Source of the DNA: Sphingobacteriales bacterium
GTDB taxonomy: Bacteria > Bacteroidota > Bacteroidia > Chitinophagales > Chitinophagaceae
Length of the DNA: 48,793 nucleotides
Assembly (NCBI GenBank): GCA_023251235.1
Contig: JAHEZE010000011.1
Span: 1-48,793 of the forward strand
Direction: 5' to 3'
Shown here: in pieces, positions 5,039 to 12,470 of the stretch
How the letters are laid out: each line of letters begins with the position of its first letter
Position numbering within the stretch: position 1 is the stretch's first letter
Translations under genes and position numbers: made by a program
The notes under the pieces: generated by a model
The model's input: only the letters and a program-made list of their open reading frames with translations
Database searches by the model: none
Told to the model about the DNA's origin: nothing

Positions 5039-5503
5039 TTATTTATATGACAAGGTCATTGTTTTACCTTCTTGCAATAAATTCCATTTCTGAATAAGTT
5101 GATTAGCTAAATTTCTGATTTTTTCCATCTTCAACTCATCAATAGGTAATGCTTTACTGCCTTCCACATCATTAATTGATGTAAAGATTTCAATAAAATT
5201 TTCCATTTTGCCCTGTGCAAATTCAATAGTAAGCATATTCACCAATTGTTCAGCAAAAAGAGCTTCTTCAGTAAGCTGAAAGTTGCGCTGAGCTTTCGGC
5301 AAATCAAATTCACTGATATCAGTTCCGGCTGCTACCATGCCATAAAAAGCATTTTTTAATGGCATTAATGTCTCCACTACAAAATGACAAAGATCATGAA
5401 TAATAAAAAATGAACTGACATGTTTCCAGCTAACTGATCCATCCTCTCTTTTACAGGATAAGATATGATCTCCGTTAAAGTTTTTTGTAAAAAGGATTTC
5501 CAT
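5039..5503 (-). CDS. Hypothetical protein, 154 residues, in HMG-CoA lyase operon
   Basis: I do not recognise this family. The protein is soluble and mostly alpha-helical in appearance, with no signal peptide, membrane segment or metal-binding cysteine cluster. A central HDLCHFVVETLM stretch (about residues 31-42) has two histidines four residues apart on a probable helix, reminiscent of a DinB-like or other four-helix metal bundle, but this is speculative. Its ATG overlaps the TAA of the upstream HMG-CoA lyase gene by one base (TAATG), indicating translational coupling, and the GSCFA gene follows after 5 bases. The context argues that it is a real gene co-expressed with HMG-CoA lyase. Confidence 0.7.
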   Translation of the reverse strand: MEILFTKNFNGDHILSCKREDGSVSWKHVSSFFIIHDLCHFVVETLMPLKNAFYGMVAAGTDISEFDLPKAQRNFQLTEEALFAEQLVNMLTIEFAQGKMENFIEIFTSINDVEGSKALPIDELKMEKIRNLANQLIQKWNLLQEGKTMTLSYK

Positions 5504-6363
5504 TAAACAAATATTTCTTCTGCAATCCGGAGGCTTTCATTCAATGCCTCTTTATTAAGTTTGGTTGAAATATTATTTTCCTCAAAATAATTGATCATCC
5601 ACCCTGTATTCATATTTCCAATAAGTTCATCATTGGCCATAGGACAACCACCAATACCTTTTAAAGCTCCATCAAATCGGGTGCAACCGGCTTTTAGAGC
5701 GGCTTCCAGTTTATTTTTCCAGTTTTCCGGTGAAGAATGCAAATGAACTCCTATCTCCGTTCCGGGTAATGTTTCAATCAAATACCTTGTAATATCATTT
5801 ACCTGTTCCGGTGTTGCTATGCCAACGGTATCGGCAAGTGAAATAATTTCTATGTCAAACTCCAATAAACTTTCCACGTAATTAAATACAATTTCTTCAT
5901 CATACACGTCTCCATAAGGATTGCCAAAGCCCATTGAAATATAAATTACCAGTTTCTTCCCGGCCTTAGTACAAAGAGTTTGAATTTCTTCTACTCTGTT
6001 TAAAGATTCACTGATTGTAGAATTTGTATTCCGGAGTTGAAAAGTTTCTGAAACCGAAAATGGAAAACCAAGATAAGTTATCTCATCATACATACAGGCA
6101 TCAATGGCCCCGCGCAGATTGGCGACAATCGCCAATAATTTTGTGTTGGTTGTTGCCAGATCCAGCTTCCTGGTTACATCCCTGGTGTCTGCCATTTGAG
6201 GAATAGCTTTTTCAGAAACAAAACTTCCATAGTCAATTGTATCAAATCCAACTTTCAGTAAAGAGTTGATATAAGCAATTTTATTTTCCGTTGAAATTAA
6301 ATTCTTCCATCCCTGCATGGCATCACGGGGGCATTCAATCAGTTTTATTTCAGAAGTATTCAT
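5503..6363 (-). CDS. Hydroxymethylglutaryl-CoA lyase
   Basis: A 286-residue HMGL-like TIM-barrel aldolase-type lyase. HMG-CoA lyase cleaves 3-hydroxy-3-methylglutaryl-CoA to acetoacetate and acetyl-CoA at the end of leucine breakdown. The N-terminal ECPRDAMQGW stretch (residues 10-19) carries the conserved Arg-Asp pair. HLHSS near residue 205 supplies the metal-binding His-x-His. GIGGCPMA around C240 matches the family active-site cysteine motif. The length is slightly below the usual 300. It begins a three-gene minus-strand operon through a TAATG overlap. A related DRE-TIM enzyme cannot be fully excluded, but the GGCPMA motif favours this call. No other leucine-degradation gene is in the window. 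Confidence 0.85.
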   Translation of the reverse strand: MNTSEIKLIECPRDAMQGWKNLISTENKIAYINSLLKVGFDTIDYGSFVSEKAIPQMADTRDVTRKLDLATTNTKLLAIVANLRGAIDACMYDEITYLGFPFSVSETFQLRNTNSTISESLNRVEEIQTLCTKAGKKLVIYISMGFGNPYGDVYDEEIVFNYVESLLEFDIEIISLADTVGIATPEQVNDITRYLIETLPGTEIGVHLHSSPENWKNKLEAALKAGCTRFDGALKGIGGCPMANDELIGNMNTGWMINYFEENNISTKLNKEALNESLRIAEEIFV

Positions 6364-6394: not shown

Positions 6395-7387
6395 TTATTT
6401 TTTTAAGCCATTTATCTTTTCCCTTAATGCATTAAAAAAACGATTTCTGTCTTTCTCACCTGTTTTGCTGATTAATGTAGAGCGGCTAAGCAGTGTATCA
6501 AAAGAACTAATTACTTTGTTTGAGAACCGGGAGTCCTTGGTAAATAAATAATGAAAAACACCATAAGTTACCATCGCCATTTTTTTCCCATCAAGATTTG
6601 CCACCATAGTGTTATTTCCAAGTATCAGTTCGTTAACATAAAATTGAATTGGAGCTTTATAAGAAACTTCAGTTGCACCCGGCATAAACTTAAATCCTTT
6701 TTCTGCCTGCAATTGTAAATGGTCAATCATTTTTTGAAAAGAACGAATGACAGAATCAAAATCTTCCTGTGTTTTAAAATTCCCGGCATCTCTGTAATAA
6801 GCAATCTGGTTGATAGTGCTGTACATACTTTCAAGATTCCATAATTCAACACACGGTATTTGATTATATTCTTCCAGTATCTTTTGCCCAAGTAAATAAC
6901 AATCATTGAAAGGGAATTCTTCAAATGAAAATGTCTTGTTACTAAGACTAGCTTCGTTATTAATTGTTTTAGACCAAAAGAAAGTTTTGAATGCAGCTAA
7001 TTCGGGGAAAAGGTAAAAATTCCAGATGGTAGAATCCTTGCACAAATAATGCATCTCCCTTGACTTAAATGAATTGAAATATTTGAATTGCATAAAAACC
7101 TCTTTCAAATAATCAACAAATTCCTTTGGGGTTCCATTCATTCCCGGTGCTTCAAATAAAACAGTTTCATTTTCCAGGTGAAGCAATTGGTCAATAGAAA
7201 GATGATAATGTTGGCAAATACGTTTCAATTCAATAAGGCTGATGGGCTTTTCCCCTCTTATTCGCCTGTATGCACTATCTGCACTTATTTCAAGCAAATC
7301 GCAAAGCTCATCCACCAATGATAAATGTGGGGGCAGGCTTTCTTTCAGATAGTTAAAAAGTTGCTGTTGGATCTCGTTGGTCTCCAT
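6395..7387 (-). CDS. Helix-turn-helix transcriptional regulator with large unknown C-terminal domain
   Basis: A 330-residue protein with an N-terminal XRE/BetR-like helix-turn-helix at about residues 24-70: LVDELCDLLEIS, then SADSAYRRIRGEKPIS as the recognition region, then LIELKRICQHYHLS. The remaining 260 residues are alpha-helical and match no ligand-binding domain I know. Proteins of this layout are common in Bacteroidota. It is transcribed away from the cluster at 7625-10375. A perfect palindrome, TTACGGA-AAA-TCCGTAA, lies 13 bases upstream of its start (7400-7416), a natural position for autoregulation and control of the divergent genes. That regulatory link is inference. Confidence 0.75.
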   Translation of the reverse strand: METNEIQQQLFNYLKESLPPHLSLVDELCDLLEISADSAYRRIRGEKPISLIELKRICQHYHLSIDQLLHLENETVLFEAPGMNGTPKEFVDYLKEVFMQFKYFNSFKSREMHYLCKDSTIWNFYLFPELAAFKTFFWSKTINNEASLSNKTFSFEEFPFNDCYLLGQKILEEYNQIPCVELWNLESMYSTINQIAYYRDAGNFKTQEDFDSVIRSFQKMIDHLQLQAEKGFKFMPGATEVSYKAPIQFYVNELILGNNTMVANLDGKKMAMVTYGVFHYLFTKDSRFSNKVISSFDTLLSRSTLISKTGEKDRNRFFNALREKINGLKK

Positions 7388-7624
7388 TTGATGTAAAAAT
7401 TACGGAAAATCCGTAAAACTCAAATTTTGATTATTGATTTTTCAAAAATTTGAACTCGCCATAGCAGCTCAAATGAATTTATGAGACTATACGTAAATAG
7501 ATTTCAGGATTAAACTTAAAAATTACTATTAATACAATCATTGTAGGGAAAAGCCATTTTGAATGACTCATGTGCTGTTTCATTTTTGTTCTGTAATCAT
7601 TTTAAACCTCAAAAAAGAAAAATC
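7388..7624. promoter_or_regulatory. Divergent intergenic control region
   Basis: A 237-base gap between the HTH regulator (minus) and the caspase-like protein gene (plus). It holds the palindrome at 7400-7416 and a second AT-rich inverted repeat, TCAAATTTT/AAAATTTGA, at 7420-7428 and 7445-7453. I could not find a convincing TAnnTTTG -7 element on either strand, so the promoters are not located. A TTG-initiated extension of the downstream reading frame back to 7559 is possible, but it would put charged residues before a clean signal peptide. Confidence 0.5.
7400..7416. promoter_or_regulatory. Perfect palindrome, putative operator of the HTH regulator
   Basis: Seventeen bases: TTACGGA, a three-base AAA spacer, then TCCGTAA. 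The two 7-base arms are exact reverse complements. The site lies 13 bases before the regulator's ATG, so a bound dimer would block its promoter or early transcription. Size and symmetry suit a dimeric helix-turn-helix protein. No copy was seen elsewhere in the window. A partial half-site-like TACGTAA lies near 7490. Confidence 0.5.
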
Positions 7625-8521
7625 ATGAAACCAGCGATCTTAATTTCTTGCATTATGTTCTGTTTGTCAAATTTTACTAGTGCACAGTTAGAGGTGAAGC
7701 AGGACAATTATAATGCAGCAGCAACTATTACTATTTCAGAATCACCCAAACACCGGATTAATTTTTATGTAGTTAATAAACCAAAAACACTGGATCTTTT
7801 TAGCCGGTTGGTAATTTGGAGAGCAAGGATAAGGGGCATGAGTCGTAGAAATAAATTTATTGTAGTTGTTTCCCGGTCTTCTAAAGAAGCAAGTGAAAAA
7901 ATACTTGATTATCTGAATAAAAAAAATGCTTTAATAGGAAGTCTCTGGTTCGATTCACATGGACATTATGCAAATGGCTACTCTTCATTTTCCCTGGGGA
8001 ATGACCAATTTAGTTATAAAACTATTCATGACACCTCCTATACAAAATACCTTCGTTTTCTTTCAGATTATTGTGATGTAAATACAAAAGTTGCAATTGG
8101 ATCATGCTACAGCGGGGCCACTTACCAAAAACCTGAACATAATGGAATACCACCAACAAGGATGAATGGAGATTCCTTAGTGATTGGTCTTGCCAATATT
8201 TTGCCAACAGCAACTGTGTATGGAACAGGCGGATGGGTAATGACAAAACCCGGAATTTTTGCAAGACATAAATATGCTTTGGCTGGTTACCCATTACAAA
8301 AAAGATTTAAGGATAAAGTCTATAAACCCGTTTGGGAAAATATGGGAGTCTGGTATAGCTACAATATTTGTTCAAATGTATATGCCAAAGTAAATACACT
8401 TTCGCTTAGCAGGATGGGAACAATTAATGTAAAAGGTGTAACTTATCTGGATAAAGAAAGTAGTAAGAAGAAATTAGTCAAGAACCTTGATAAACTTAGG
8501 AACGGGCTTGTAAAGTCATAA
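7625..8521 (+). CDS. Secreted caspase-like fold protein, putative cysteine peptidase
   Basis: A 298-residue protein with a clear Sec signal peptide (MKPAILISCIMFCLSNFTSA before Q21). The mature part has the landmarks of the caspase/clostripain superfamily: a hydrophobic strand ending in F-D-S-H112-G-H, and 49 residues later a second strand ending in A-I-G-S-C161-Y-S-G, close to the DSCYSG form of bacterial caspase-like proteins. These are the likely catalytic His and Cys. The C-terminal 100 residues are basic. I chose the ATG at 7625 because it gives the signal peptide; an upstream in-frame TTG at 7559 does not. The gene heads a three-gene plus-strand cluster divergent from a regulator. The fold assignment comes from motif and strand pattern only; the substrate is unknown. 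Confidence 0.6.
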   Translation: MKPAILISCIMFCLSNFTSAQLEVKQDNYNAAATITISESPKHRINFYVVNKPKTLDLFSRLVIWRARIRGMSRRNKFIVVVSRSSKEASEKILDYLNKKNALIGSLWFDSHGHYANGYSSFSLGNDQFSYKTIHDTSYTKYLRFLSDYCDVNTKVAIGSCYSGATYQKPEHNGIPPTRMNGDSLVIGLANILPTATVYGTGGWVMTKPGIFARHKYALAGYPLQKRFKDKVYKPVWENMGVWYSYNICSNVYAKVNTLSLSRMGTINVKGVTYLDKESSKKKLVKNLDKLRNGLVKS

Positions 8522-8563
8522 AAAAAATTATCAATTTTTTCTTAAACTCGTAAAAAAGAAATC

Positions 8564-9181
8564 ATGAGAAAATTCATCACTTTTTCGGTTTTGCTTCTTC
8601 TTGCCATTCAAATGGAGGCGCAAAAATCCAAAAGACAAAAACAATTCAGCATTGCCATTATGAATGTCCAGACTGCAATGCCTTTTGATAAATTCAGTGC
8701 TTTACTTTATAAAGATCTGCATCCCGGTGTTGAAGCAGGAATTGGGTTTAACTGGAAAGTGAAACGTAAGCATGATTGGTACCAGGAATTTAAAGCAGGT
8801 TATTTCTTTCATCGCTTTGTACAGCATGGTATTCCTGTTTATACAAATTTTGGGTACAGGTATAAATTTTCAAGCAAGTTATCCCTTGCTACATCAATTG
8901 GCGCAGGCTATCTTCATTCTATTCCTGCCACAGCAAAATTCAAACTCGCTTCAAACGGCACTTATGAAAAAAATATTGGTGTTGGAAGAGTGCAGGCAAT
9001 GGCAATTTATTCGTTGGGTGCAGGATATATTTTTAGATCTTCTACACAAAAGCCATTCAAGCTTTTTGCAAGTTATCAGCAGAGAATACAAATGCCATTT
9101 GTAAAATCTTATGTTCCTATTCTGCCATATAGCAGTTTTATGATTGGTATCAGTAAATCATTAATCAGAAAAAATAAATAA
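8564..9181 (+). CDS. Small outer-membrane beta-barrel-like protein
   Basis: A 205-residue protein with a signal peptide (MRKFITFSVLLLLAIQMEAQ). The mature part is a series of amphipathic beta strands rich in aromatic residues and glycine, such as GIGFNWKVKRKHDWYQEFKAGYFFH and SLATSIGAGYLHS. The C-terminal strand is FMIGISKSL followed by a short basic tail. This resembles 8- to 10-stranded outer-membrane proteins of Bacteroidota; no enzymatic motif is seen. It starts 42 bases after the caspase-like gene and ends 3 bases before the serine-hydrolase gene, so the three are probably one operon. It may anchor or assist one of its exported neighbours (inference). Confidence 0.65.
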   Translation: MRKFITFSVLLLLAIQMEAQKSKRQKQFSIAIMNVQTAMPFDKFSALLYKDLHPGVEAGIGFNWKVKRKHDWYQEFKAGYFFHRFVQHGIPVYTNFGYRYKFSSKLSLATSIGAGYLHSIPATAKFKLASNGTYEKNIGVGRVQAMAIYSLGAGYIFRSSTQKPFKLFASYQQRIQMPFVKSYVPILPYSSFMIGISKSLIRKNK

Positions 9182-9184
9182 TTT

Positions 9185-10375
9185 ATGAAACCCTTTATCT
9201 ATATAAGCTTTTTTACTGTTTTCATTTTTCTTTCCTGCAACAAACCACAGATTGGCAAAACGAAAGTAGTTGGAGTGGCAATCCCATGGTCAGACTCAAG
9301 CAGTATCCATCCAAAAAATATTGCTTTCAGAAATTTAATAGAGAAATATAATAAAAAAGGATTGCCGGGAATTTCTTTACTTGTAACAGACAAAAATGGA
9401 ACATGGGTTGGTGCTACAGGGAAAGCAGATCTTACTAATAATATTGATTTTGTTCCAGGAACTGTTTCGAAAGTTGCGAGCATCACAAAACTTTTTATTG
9501 GCACACTGGTTTTTAAATTAATGGAAGATTCAGTAACTACAGGAATTGGCTATAAGGATATTAATACGAAAATTTCAAAATGGTTGCCTTCCGGAGTTAT
9601 CAATAAACTTCCCAATGGAAACTTAGTTACTCTTGGCCAATGTATGAATCATGAAACAGGAATTCCTGATGTGATTGAAGAAGATCCTTTTTACCTGGCT
9701 GTATTAAATAATCCCAATAAAAAATGGAGAGCAGAAGAATTGCTTGAGTTTATTTACAATAAAACTCCTTTATTCAAACCATCGGATACAGCAATTTATT
9801 CCAATACCAACACAATTCTTGTAACAATGGTTATTGAAGCAGCGACAGGTAAAAATCATGCTGATTTATTGAAACAATATGTTTTGAATCCATTGAACCT
9901 GGCAAACACTTTTTACCAACCACATGATAAATTACCCAATAGTGTAGCACAGGGATATTTTGATCTTTATAACAATAATACAATTATCAATGTTTCCAAC
10001 CTCGTTACAGGAAGCGGAAATGGTTATGGCGGCATTTACAGTAATCTTTTTGATTTGCAAAAATTTCTAAATGCATTATTGGTTCAAAGAACATTTTTGA
10101 AGCCTTCGTCAATGGCTATTATGGAAACCTATGGCAAGTCCGATGATCCAAACCAATATGGATATGGAATTATGAAAAAATTTATCAGTCGTGGAATTAA
10201 TGCCGGCTATGGACACAGTGGCCGGGATCTTGGCTACACTGCCAACATGTTTTATTTTACCAATAAGAAAGTGTCACATATCTTCTTTATTAATTATGGT
10301 ACGGATGCTGATAGTGGATTAAAACAAGTCTTCAAAGATTTCCAGGAGGAATTATTGAATCTTACTCTTAATTAA
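9185..10375 (+). CDS. Lipoprotein serine hydrolase of the beta-lactamase/DD-peptidase (class C) family
   Basis: A 396-residue serine hydrolase with a lipoprotein signal (FLSC, lipidated Cys at residue 18). The catalytic S99-I-T-K102 is the SxxK motif, Y205-S-N207 the YxN motif, and H344-S-G346 replaces the KTG box as is usual in the AmpC/esterase-like S12 family. Relatives include D-aminopeptidases, esterases and PBP4*-type enzymes, so a true beta-lactamase role should not be assumed. A periplasmic location attached to a membrane is expected. It starts 3 bases after the outer-membrane protein gene. Its stop overlaps the converging rlmB stop by 4 bases. Confidence 0.85.
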   Translation: MKPFIYISFFTVFIFLSCNKPQIGKTKVVGVAIPWSDSSSIHPKNIAFRNLIEKYNKKGLPGISLLVTDKNGTWVGATGKADLTNNIDFVPGTVSKVASITKLFIGTLVFKLMEDSVTTGIGYKDINTKISKWLPSGVINKLPNGNLVTLGQCMNHETGIPDVIEEDPFYLAVLNNPNKKWRAEELLEFIYNKTPLFKPSDTAIYSNTNTILVTMVIEAATGKNHADLLKQYVLNPLNLANTFYQPHDKLPNSVAQGYFDLYNNNTIINVSNLVTGSGNGYGGIYSNLFDLQKFLNALLVQRTFLKPSSMAIMETYGKSDDPNQYGYGIMKKFISRGINAGYGHSGRDLGYTANMFYFTNKKVSHIFFINYGTDADSGLKQVFKDFQEELLNLTLN

Positions 10376-11139
10376 AGACTCTGACGTTGTTTCATTGCTT
10401 CAAATAAAATAATCCCCGTTGCCACTGAAACATTCAAGCTTTCAAAATCCCCACTCATGGGGATTTTTATTTTTTCATCACAAGCCTTTAACAGAGCGGG
10501 ATAAATCCCTTTTTCTTCACTGCCAATAACTAAAGCGCAAGGCTCAGTAAAATCAACTTCAATAATACTTTTTGCGGCCTTCATTTCACTGGCATAAACT
10601 TTTATACCATTCAGATGCAATTCATCAATTGTTTTTAATAAACTACTTACTCTGCAAACGGGTATTTTTTCCAAAGCGCCGGCTGATGTCAGAATCGCAT
10701 CTTCATTTAATGCTCCAATTCCTTTATCCGGAATAATAATGGCTTGCACTCCCATGCAATAAGCAGTACGGGCTATGCCACCGATATTCCTGATATCAGT
10801 TATTCCATCCAGTATGAGGAAAAGCGGGGTCTCTCCTTTTTCTATTACAAAGGATATGATATCCTGCAGATTTATGTACTGTACTTTAGCTATCTGTGCT
10901 ACACAGCCTTCATGATTGGTAATATTAAAAGCATTGAGTTTGGCTACCGGAACATAATTAACAGGAATAGCATTTTGCAGTGCCATTTTTTTAATTTCAT
11001 TTACCTGGCTGCCGATTACTTTTGTATCAAGATAAATTCTGTCCAGTGCCTGCCCGGTTTGCAAAGCCTTCATCACGGCTTGACGGCCAATTACCAAAGA
11101 ATTTTTCCTGGGACGATTTTGGTGTCTGAAATTTTTCAC
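10372..11139 (-). CDS. rlmB: 23S rRNA 2'-O-methyltransferase, RlmB/TrmH family
   Basis: A 255-residue SPOUT methyltransferase. The N-terminal 75 residues form the small substrate-binding domain (VIGRQAVMKAL). The C-terminal SpoU domain has the three family motifs: DGITDIRNIGGIART near residues 110-125, VIGSEEKGIYP near 203-213, and IPMSGDFESLNVSVATGI near 223-240. SAM binds in the trefoil knot made by the last two. RlmB methylates G2251 in the 23S rRNA P-loop. The assignment to RlmB rather than another TrmH paralogue rests on length and N-terminal domain. It lies just downstream of metK, which makes its methyl donor, though a strong terminator separates the two. Confidence 0.85.
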   Translation of the reverse strand: MKNFRHQNRPRKNSLVIGRQAVMKALQTGQALDRIYLDTKVIGSQVNEIKKMALQNAIPVNYVPVAKLNAFNITNHEGCVAQIAKVQYINLQDIISFVIEKGETPLFLILDGITDIRNIGGIARTAYCMGVQAIIIPDKGIGALNEDAILTSAGALEKIPVCRVSSLLKTIDELHLNGIKVYASEMKAAKSIIEVDFTEPCALVIGSEEKGIYPALLKACDEKIKIPMSGDFESLNVSVATGIILFEAMKQRQSL

Positions 11140-11160
11140 TTGTCAAATGTATTATAAACT

Positions 11161-11193
11161 AAAAACCCTGCAAGTTTTTCCAAACTCACAGAG
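11161..11193 (-). terminator. Rho-independent terminator of metK
   Basis: On the minus strand a 12-base stem (11182-11193 with 11166-11177, three G-U pairs) closes a four-base loop and is followed by five Ts (11161-11165). It lies between the metK stop and the rlmB start and should separate the two same-strand genes. Confidence 0.75.
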
Positions 11194-11219
11194 TCTTCGT
11201 AATTCCCCTTTAAGAGGAT

Positions 11220-12470
11220 TTAGAGGGTTTTTATTCCAAAAGCTTTTTTCACTTTTCCTACATAATCCAGCTTTTCCCAGGTAAACAATTCTACTTTTCT
11301 TTTTGCCACTCTGCCATCAGGAGAAACAAATGTTTTTTCAACAATTTGCGGGCTGCGACCCATATGTCCGTATGCGGCTGTTTCGCTGTAAATAGGATTG
11401 CGAAGTTTCAATCGGCTTTCAATAAAGTAGGGACGCATATCAAAAATCTTACTCACCTTATCTCCAATCTCAGCATCAGTCATTTTTACTTTTGCTGATC
11501 CGTATGTATTTACATTAATGCTGGTCGGTTGAGCTATACCGATTGCATAGGATACTTGTACCAGCACTTCATCACACACTCCTGCAGCTACCAGGTTCTT
11601 TGCAATATGTCGTGTTGCATAGGCTGCGCTTCTATCGACCTTACTTGGGTCCTTTCCACTAAATGCGCCACCACCATGAGCTCCTTTACCGCCATAGGTA
11701 TCAACAATGATTTTTCTACCGGTTAAGCCGGTATCACCATGCGGCCCACCAATTACAAATTTTCCGGTTGGGTTGATATGATACTTGATCTTATCATTAA
11801 ACTGTTTCTGAACAGATTTTTTACATTTCCCTTTCACCCTTGGAATGAGAATGTTGATAATATCTTTTCTGATTTTCTCCTGGCTTATGTTATCATCATG
11901 TTGTGTGGAAACTACAATTGCATCAATACGGATCGGGGTATTATTATCGTCATATTCCAGTGTAACCTGGCTTTTAGCATCCGGCCTCAGGTATTTAATC
12001 TGTTTATTCTCTCTGCGCAAAGCAGCTAACTCAATTAGCAGTTTATGAGCAAGATCCAGTGCTAAGGGCATATAATTGTCTGTTTCATTACAAGCATACC
12101 CAAACATCATTCCCTGGTCACCGGCGCCCTGTTCTTCTTTCTTTTTTCTGTCCACACCCTGATTGATGTCAGGTGATTGTTCATGAATAGCAGAGAATAC
12201 TCCGCAACTGTTTGCTTCAAACATGTATTCGCTTTTAGTATATCCTATCCTGCGAATAACTTCACGGGCAATCTCCTGTACATCCAGGTAAGCTTTGGAT
12301 TTCACTTCTCCTGCCAATACTACTTGGCCAGTAGTTACAAGTGTCTCACAGGCAACTTTAGAATTTGGATCAAAAGCAAGAAAATTGTCGATCAAAGCAT
12401 CACTTATCTGATCGGCTATTTTGTCCGGGTGCCCCTCGGATACGCTTTCAGAAGTAAACAAATATGGCAT
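11220..12470 (-). CDS. metK: S-adenosylmethionine synthetase
   Basis: A 416-residue methionine adenosyltransferase that makes SAM from methionine and ATP. Landmarks include [17 protein letters not shown] at residues 9-25 with the ATP-contacting His14, [12 protein letters not shown] near 116-127, the P-loop-like [19 protein letters not shown] near residue 270, and a normal C-terminus. The length is slightly above the E. coli enzyme (384) because of insertions common in Bacteroidota. The 196-base leader before the ATG contains two hairpins (12591-12638) that may belong to termination of the upstream gene or to metK control. Confidence 0.97.

What the first reader, a model, noticed from the sequence alone, without database searches (positions are those of the whole stretch)
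6395..10375. Regulator-controlled envelope cluster: caspase-like protein, small OMP and serine hydrolase
An HTH regulator with a large uncharacterised domain is divergent from three plus-strand genes, close together (42- and 3-base gaps), all exported: a protein with a caspase-like His/Cys dyad, a small outer-membrane barrel and an S12 lipoprotein hydrolase. I know no named system with this make-up. It could be a regulated envelope proteolysis or peptidoglycan-modification module; the shared control region has a palindrome. Co-function is inference from spacing and export.
Basis: partly seen in the sequence, partly recalled or inferred. Interest (0 to 1): 0.6.

Follow-up and report, generated by a model that had tools for sequence, protein, structure and literature searches.

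The report
Rigid-geometry switch for exported caspase-fold protein
In a Chitinophagaceae-like genome, a local regulator and its own DNA operator sit at a nearly fixed distance from the promoter of an exported, caspase-like protein; several related genomes keep this layout with other exported genes in its place, so it looks like a dedicated switch for envelope enzymes, not yet tested at the bench.

Summary
Observation confirmed: four genes, 42- and 3-base gaps, perfect 17-bp palindrome (7400-7416). The 'one system' reading is partly supported: the cluster joins two modules. S12 follows OMP in 11 of 11 family hits. The caspase-like gene is divergent from this regulator in 8 of 19 loci and from a LytS-type kinase in 7; these are two tree clades. 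All four genes in order: 5 of 19, one with an insertion. The caspase-like protein has no named family; its model is clan-CD-like (best Tce1, Z 13.3) with an invariant His/Cys dyad. The regulator's second domain looks PLD-like without HKD (0 of 23). The palindrome follows the regulator clade, not the cargo, and occurs once in this genome. New here: operator to cargo -7 box is 180-182 bp in 12 of 13 loci although the DNA between is unalike and cargo differs; three paralogous regulators with another operator word keep 179-182 bp. Proposed: a local, perhaps DNA-looping switch for an envelope cysteine-peptidase module. Function untested.

The parts
6395..7387 (-). REG: XRE/BetR-type HTH regulator (residues ~1-75) with C-terminal domain (~76-306) that looks PLD-like but lacks the HKD motif
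   Evidence: PF08667 over cut-off; AlphaFold2 model pLDDT 88.3; VIA matches to PLD-superfamily chains, Z 7.2-8.8; 0 of 23 HxKxxxxD
7400..7416 (.). Operator 1 (proposed): palindrome TTACGGA-AAA-TCCGTAA, 12 nt from the REG start codon
   Evidence: single exact site in own genome
7557..7561 (+). Upstream element of the cargo promoter (TTTTG here; in relatives a TTA is conserved 24 bp before the -7 box)
   Evidence: inference
7581..7588 (+). Cargo promoter -7 box, proposed (CATTTTTG here, 5 of 6 to TAnnTTTG), 181 bp from operator start
   Evidence: consensus from passages of PMC9723704
7625..8521 (+). CASP: exported caspase-fold (clan-CD-like) protein, 298 aa; His112 codon 7958-7960, Cys161 codon 8105-8107
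8564..9181 (+). OMP: small exported protein, probable outer-membrane barrel (inferred), partner of S12
9185..10375 (+). S12: lipoprotein serine hydrolase of the class C beta-lactamase/PBP type; SITK at residue 99, YSN 205, HSG 344
5503..6363 (-). Flank: HMGL-like lyase, downstream of REG; recurring neighbour that marks the site
10372..12470 (-). Flank: rRNA methyltransferase-like gene (10372-11139) and metK (11220-12470), both named from recall; recurring neighbours on the other side
   Evidence: homology only

Best explanation
A self-contained, locally regulated envelope-enzyme module. REG senses an unknown ligand through a PLD-like domain without the catalytic motif. It binds the palindrome beside its own start codon (auto-control) and, by contact with the divergent promoter about 17 helical turns away (probably a DNA loop), sets transcription of the cargo operon CASP-OMP-S12. 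CASP is exported by Sec and acts as a His112/Cys161 cysteine endopeptidase in the envelope; the S12 lipoprotein with its OMP partner hydrolyses or remodels envelope material. Shown: gene layout, predicted fold and invariant dyad, operator conservation, single genomic site, fixed spacing, conflict of the two gene trees. Inferred: REG-operator binding, looping, sign of control, one transcript, export route, proteolysis, substrates.
For: Operator-like palindrome (at least 11 of 14 positions) in 14 of 21 REG upstream regions scored; all 14 belong to the 17-member REG clade, and the 3 scored regions outside that clade plus L014:683 (not in the tree) lack it. It is present whether the cargo is CASP or not. 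Operator start to -7 box is 180-182 bp in 12 of 13 loci. The middle 105 nt have mean pairwise identity 0.295 against 0.265 shuffled, L012 left out. Three regulators of another subgroup with TTTAGTAAA pairs 31-32 bp apart have the box at 181, 179 and 182 bp (L009, L048, L063). In 57 distinct REG upstream regions 16 of 25 exact TAnnTTTG boxes lie 185-200 nt from the REG start. CASP: pLDDT 81.8; Tce1 Z 13.3, 168 residues aligned of a 178-residue chain; CHAT, CPD, Raptor, C11 and legumain chains next; dyad 21 of 21. OMP-S12 11 of 11. S12 gene within at most 6 kb of CASP in 8 of 19 loci (four loci have shorter flanks), own genome holding 14 PF00144 matches.
Against: The window's own box (CATTTTTG) misses the consensus at one base, and it has no exact second operator site. 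The exact box is in 9 of 13 loci, not all. L012's best box is 192 bp from its first operator site and 161 bp from its second, better one. Among other REG genes, L014:1784 has its box at 314, L050:2704 at 216, and L049:2484 and L052 have an operator-like word but no box. No expression or binding data. REG and CASP trees conflict. Of 17 CASP loci outside the window with enough flank, 10 lack REG next door (7 have a kinase, 3 neither). Three members of the operator-bearing REG clade lack the palindrome (L067, L071, L072). PLD-like Z values of 7-9 are in a range the tool warns about.
Confidence: 0.5

Rival explanations
1. CASP is an exported effector or antibacterial toxin: a stand-alone version of the caspase-like tips of polymorphic toxins and of Tce1-type T6SS effectors.
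For: Best fold match is Tce1, a putative T6SS cysteine-protease effector (passages of PMC13323088). The distant relative in G425 carries an RHS-core-like stretch (TIGR03696, 31.0 bits, just under the 32.5 cut-off) before its caspase-like domain. PMC3482391 section 11 describes caspase-like toxin tips in Bacteroidetes.
Against: Signal peptide plus one domain, no delivery domain, no constant small partner seen that could be immunity, no plasmid or phage match, recurring chromosomal sites beside housekeeping genes. PMC13323088 itself reports no marked growth effect of Tce1 in E. coli and no obvious immunity gene (passage), so lack of immunity does not exclude an effector.
Confidence: 0.2
2. CASP is a non-proteolytic caspase-fold protein (binding or scaffold), as in Raptor; the dyad is kept for other reasons.
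For: Raptor chains appear among the VIA matches; no activity data.
Against: His and Cys 21 of 21, with D[ST]HG and G[SA]CY kept in the 19 close members, speaks for catalysis.
Confidence: 0.12
3. REG controls only itself and CASP; OMP-S12 is an unrelated two-gene unit parked downstream with its own promoter, and the four-gene cluster has no joint function.
For: OMP-S12 stands without CASP beside it in 8 of 11 family hits; the full set is in 5 of 19 CASP loci.
Against: In the contiguous loci CASP-OMP gaps are short (42 bases here, 26 in L014, 23 in L017 and L094); an S12 gene of another subfamily sits downstream of CASP in L008 and L015.
Confidence: 0.3
4. The constant 181-bp spacing is shared ancestry, not a constraint on regulator action.
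For: All regions are homologous by descent; rows are not independent. 181 bp is 17.2 turns, not a whole number, at 10.5 bp per turn.
Against: Intervening sequence is near-random in identity, cargo genes and total lengths (199-408) differ, and three regulators with another operator word keep the spacing. L012 is longer by about one helical turn if counted from its first site.
Confidence: 0.2

Closest known systems
Tce1 (P. aeruginosa Hcp3-loaded putative cysteine protease, PDB 9qpe)
   Same: Same caspase-like core over 168 residues, Z 13.3, rmsd 3.1; His/Cys dyad with similar spacing (His186/Cys240 in Tce1 per passages of PMC13323088; 112/161 here)
   Different: 11% identity; CASP has a signal peptide and a dedicated regulator; a T6SS was not searched for
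Clan CD peptidases (C11, C13 legumain, C14 caspases, C80 CPD, CHAT)
   Same: Fold matches; HG and C follow model strands 103-110 and 155-159
   Different: No Pfam or NCBIfam family reached for CASP; in the samples searched, close members only in the window's own family
TrmB-type regulators (archaeal; HTH plus PLD-like sensor; general description recalled)
   Same: DNA-binding domain joined to a PLD-like domain; TrmBL2 Z 7.6
   Different: HTH is XRE/BetR type; Bacteroidota; no sequence hit
Rgg/PrgX/ComR regulators
   Same: XRE HTH with large C-terminal part; top Foldseek rows, VIA aligns the HTH part
   Different: C-terminal part of the model is alpha/beta and matches PLD-like chains instead
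Looping repressors with divergent promoters (AraC, GalR; recalled)
   Same: Paired sites about three turns apart and a fixed long distance to the other promoter
   Different: No binding evidence here; spacing 181 bp; other regulator type
AmpH and other S12 hydrolases
   Same: SxxK, YxN, HxG motifs; AmpH equivalog is the best NCBIfam row
   Different: 68.7 bits against a 266-bit cut-off; paired with an OMP

Membership tests
Clan CD cysteine peptidases (for CASP) | caspase/hemoglobinase fold | tested here: met
   Predicted model only. Tce1 Z 13.3, and 48 of the 50 rows shown are clan CD, CHAT or Raptor-type chains (6bcu_W taken as Raptor); the two others are 9qfh and 9nr6. Foldseek rows mix caspases with RecA-like chains
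Clan CD cysteine peptidases (for CASP) | His-Gly and x-Cys each after a hydrophobic strand | tested here: met
   D[ST]HG and G[SA]CY in 19 of 19; H, G and C in 21 of 21 with the two distant rows
Clan CD cysteine peptidases (for CASP) | peptidase activity lost without the Cys | not testable with these tools
   needs purified protein
Peptidase C14 / metacaspase | match to the family's profile | tested here: not met
   not among the 12 families hit at E <= 1 by any of 14 members
Polymorphic toxin (Tox-Caspase) | delivery or repeat domain before the toxin tip | tested here: not met
   CASP is signal peptide plus one domain
Polymorphic toxin (Tox-Caspase) | adjacent immunity gene | tested here: inconclusive
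   no constant small partner noticed in the loci, but the function of small neighbours is unknown
T6SS effector (Tce1-like) | delivery by Hcp/T6SS | not tested
   no search for T6SS genes was made
XRE / BetR regulators (for REG) | Cro/CI-type HTH | tested here: met
   PF08667 over cut-off; HTH chains Z about 8
TrmB family (for REG) | PLD-like sensor domain | tested here: inconclusive
   several PLD-superfamily chains at Z 7.2-8.8 including TrmBL2, a range the tool calls middling
TrmB family (for REG) | winged HTH of PF01978 | tested here: not met
   not among the 5 Pfam hits at E <= 1; XRE-type HTH found instead
Active PLD enzymes (for REG) | HxKxxxxD motif | tested here: not met
   0 of 23
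S12 serine hydrolases | PF00144 match and SxxK, YxN, HxG | tested here: met
   (133.8 bits, cut-off 27); the motif names are recalled
AmpH equivalog | score over NCBIfam cut-off | tested here: not met
   68.7 against 266 bits

The most novel reading that the evidence does not exclude
XRE-pseudo-PLD regulators form an undescribed class of Bacteroidota local switches that hold the cargo promoter at about 17 helical turns from their operator by looping. The operator word drifts with the regulator subgroup, the geometry stays, and exported cargo is exchanged in and out of the site. In this window the cargo is a new clan-CD family, so the locus is a signal-gated bacterial caspase-fold envelope protease with an S12/OMP helper pair.
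Probability: 0.35. Interest if true: 0.75.

Novelty: new variant of a known kind. Interest (0 to 1): 0.6.

Why it matters
It gives an unnamed caspase-fold family with a clear regulatory context (two regulator types that match two clades), a regulator family with a testable operator, and a spacing rule exact enough for a simple helical-phase experiment. Locally regulated exported caspase-like enzymes would be an entry to what such proteins do inside bacterial envelopes.

Tried and rejected
PDB by sequence: no useful match for CASP alone (best E 0.12) and none as a profile; the REG profile reaches one HTH chain at 0.0013. Plasmids and phages: no CASP match. PADLOC: only a weak HTH hit for REG, so a defence system was not pursued. 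A general rule 'REG always faces an exported gene' was dropped: my crude signal-peptide script of 320 background ORFs exported and misses 7 of 19 CASPs, one of them truncated. A regulon was sought with up to 2 mismatches: 1 perfect site and 5 others with 2 mismatches, fewer than the reversed-pattern control (15), so no regulon is claimed. The generic sigma-70 scan gave 10 sites against a shuffle mean of 14.5 and the terminator scan 2 against 2.1; one of these 2 is the palindrome itself, read on the REG strand, so an attenuator-like role is not excluded. Papers: Chitinophagaceae with caspase and peptidase none; DUF4347 with caspase none; caspase-like, clan CD, Bacteroidetes, periplasm 18 papers, 15 listed, of which I opened only PMC3482391 (passages; section 11). 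Searches were seen as listings, except passages of PMC9723704 and PMC13323088. That nothing on this cluster is in print rests only. VIA and Foldseek absences prove nothing.

L067, L071, L072 and L073 were not in the 13 spacing loci because they have no palindrome. L012 was left out of the identity count. For the 13 loci the box was taken as the best match at 189-196 nt from the REG start; in 11 of them it is also the best or equal best at 150-240, the others being L064 (region too short for that scan) and L012 (best at 202).

Full report
What is there. The four genes and the gaps are as described. REG (6395-7387, minus) has a BetR/XRE HTH (PF08667 over cut-off). S12 is a PF00144 hydrolase (E 9.9e-39) with SITK, YSN and HSG and a lipobox. 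The caspase-like protein (CASP, ATG at 7625) and the OMP have no family over cut-off in Pfam and none at E <= 1 in NCBIfam.

What CASP is. Relatives: 7 of 147 genomes of the family sample, 11 of 396 of the order sample including the own genome and two distant ones, only the own genome of 395 in the phylum sample, and 7 loci by pattern scan of named genomes. In 14 aligned members H112, G113, C161, Y162, G164 and a GDSL stretch are invariant; with five more close and two distant rows H, G and C are 21 of 21. The AlphaFold2 model (mean pLDDT 81.8) puts the His two residues after strand 103-110 and the Cys two residues after strand 155-159, as in caspases (comparison recalled). Foldseek's first row is caspase-3 (E 1.7e-4), with RecA/RAD51-like rows at similar E. 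VIA-align gives Tce1 at Z 13.3 (168 residues aligned, chain of 178, rmsd 3.1), well above CHAT 7.9, CPD 7.7, an mTORC1 chain 7.6, C11 7.5 and legumain 6.6. Tce1 is a putative T6SS cysteine-protease effector (passages of PMC13323088). One distant relative (L096) has an RHS-core-like stretch before the domain (31.0 bits, cut-off 32.5). So CASP is a clan-CD-like fold with an intact dyad; activity is not shown.

Neighbours of CASP. Of 19 loci (the window included), 8 have REG divergent and next door (W, L009, L012, L014, L015, L017, L019, L094), 7 have a LytS-type histidine kinase divergent (L010, L013, L018, L020, L091, L092, L093; kinases by Pfam; LytTR regulators by Pfam in L010 and L091, by eye in L018, L020, L092 and L093, none seen in the stretch of L013), and 4 have neither or cannot be judged (L008, L016 and L095 neither; L011 cut by the contig end). 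L020 also has two REG paralogues about 3 kb away. On the CASP tree the two labelled groups fall on two sides of one branch (support 100/99). All four genes in order: W, L014, L017, L094, and L009 with a methyltransferase inserted (5 of 19). An S12 gene within at most 6 kb of CASP: 8 of 19 (flanks are shorter in L008, L011, L015 and L016); L008 and L015 have an S12 of another subfamily downstream, L093 a convergent one. The own genome has 14 PF00144 matches, so by chance about one of 19 would be expected (my estimate).

OMP-S12. In the family sample OMP has hits in 11 of 147 genomes. In 11 of 11 an S12 gene follows at once on the same strand; in G038 it is split into two frames. CASP is beside the pair in 2 (own and G091), unknown in G038 (contig end), and not in the other 8; one of these (G019) has a CASP on another contig. 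The pair is a module of its own.

REG. Three copies in the own genome, matches in 42 of 147 family genomes at E <= 1e-20 and 31 of 395 in the phylum sample at E <= 1e-15. The model (pLDDT 88.3) has an HTH and an alpha/beta domain that VIA matches to PLD-superfamily chains: SauUSI 8.8, F13 8.3, FAM83B 7.8, PPK 7.7, TrmBL2 7.6, NucT 7.6 (that these share the PLD fold is recalled). These Z values are middling by the tool's own note; their agreement on one superfamily is what persuades me. HxKxxxxD is absent in 23 of 23. A sensor role is inference.

The control region. The palindrome scores at least 11 of 14 in 14 of 21 REG upstream regions, each reached by at most 3 of 500 shuffles. All 14 lie in the supported REG clade of 17 (100/97); the three clade members without it are L067, L071 and L072 (L072 scores 10 of 14). 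The three scored regions outside the clade, and L014:683, which was not in the tree, lack it. It is there with CASP cargo (8 loci) and with other cargo (L064, L065, L066, L069, L070; also L068, cargo unseen). In the own genome there is one exact site, and 5 further sites with 2 mismatches against 15 for a reversed control: REG looks like a local regulator.

Fixed geometry. Thirteen REG-cargo intergenic regions were aligned. A Bacteroidetes-type -7 box (TAnnTTTG; consensus read in passages of PMC9723704) is exact in 9 of 13 between 151 and 230 nt from the REG start, against a shuffle mean of 0.53 and maximum of 4. Exact or 5-of-6 boxes lie 180-182 bp from the operator start in 12 of 13; the window's is 5 of 6 at 181. 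L012's best box (5 of 6) is 192 bp from its first operator site, one helical turn more, but 161 bp from its second and better site. In L064 the ORF start used overlaps the box, so its true start is probably further in. The 105 nt between have mean pairwise identity 0.295 (shuffled 0.265; L012 left out), while the operator has 0.793. A second operator-like half-site follows at about +31/32 in 9 of the 14 operator regions (in L065 only its far arm; not in the window), and a TTA 24 bp before the box is conserved (13, 12 and 10 of 13). Three REG genes of another subgroup carry TTTAGTAAA pairs 31-32 bp apart and a box 181, 179 and 182 bp away (L009:1497, L048, L063). Over 57 distinct REG upstream regions, 16 of 25 exact boxes are 185-200 nt from the REG start; 41 of 57 have no exact box there, about a dozen of them second members of tandem pairs. 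Against the rule: L014:1784 (box at 314), L050:2704 (216), L049:2484 and L052 (operator-like word, no box). The regions are related by descent and are not independent.

Cargo exchange. REG of the window is closest to L017 (73%), CASP to L015 (66%). The REG data reject W+L015 (p-AU 8e-4) and the CASP data reject W+L017 (p-AU 2.7e-73). On the REG tree the CASP label needs 5 changes, at least 3 by starred branches (L068's cargo is unseen and counted as none). The groups for these tests were chosen after seeing identities, so the p values are indicative.

Mechanism. Best reading: local auto-controlled switch, probably looping between operator and cargo promoter, driving an exported cysteine-peptidase module with an OMP-S12 helper pair (confidence 0.5). 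Shown: layout, predicted fold, dyad, operator, spacing, tree conflict. Inferred: binding, looping, sign of control, co-transcription, proteolysis, substrates.

Compared with the known. It works like regulator-controlled exported enzymes with divergent promoters. CASP belongs by predicted fold and motif to clan CD but to no named family tested; it is not a C14 member by profile. REG resembles TrmB in having a PLD-like domain but its HTH is of another class. Overall: a new variant of known kinds, with an uncommonly rigid control-region rule.

Noticed in passing
own genome contig C83:1348-3392 (L022/L023): Two tandem REG paralogues followed by a DUF4197 gene; DUF4197 is next to, or one gene from, tandem REG pairs in L049, L053, L055, L056, L057, L058 and L062, and near clade-B CASP genes beside a lysS-like gene (lysS named from recall).
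   Followed up: partly
L065:4002-4637, L066:9829-10464, L064:8429-9634, L069:7618-8784, L070:9257-10426: Probably exported proteins without Pfam match take the CASP place opposite REG; L069 and L070 look alike by eye.
   Followed up: partly
L096:8497-10014 and L097:8581-10062: Distant CASP relatives of about 500 aa: one with an RHS-core-like stretch, the other with a helical-looking N-terminus and repeated small lipoprotein-like neighbours.
   Followed up: partly
L018:9497-9991, L091:8441-8827, L092:8357-8845, L010:7582-7920: Small, probably exported protein just upstream of clade-B CASP genes; no Pfam hit in the two scanned (L018, L092).
   Followed up: no
L074:859-2045 (G038): The S12 gene is split into two overlapping frames, a frameshift or assembly error.
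   Followed up: no
window 5039-5503: A 154-aa frame lies between the HMGL-like gene and the 4008-5033 gene; in L017 and L019 these two are direct neighbours.
   Followed up: no
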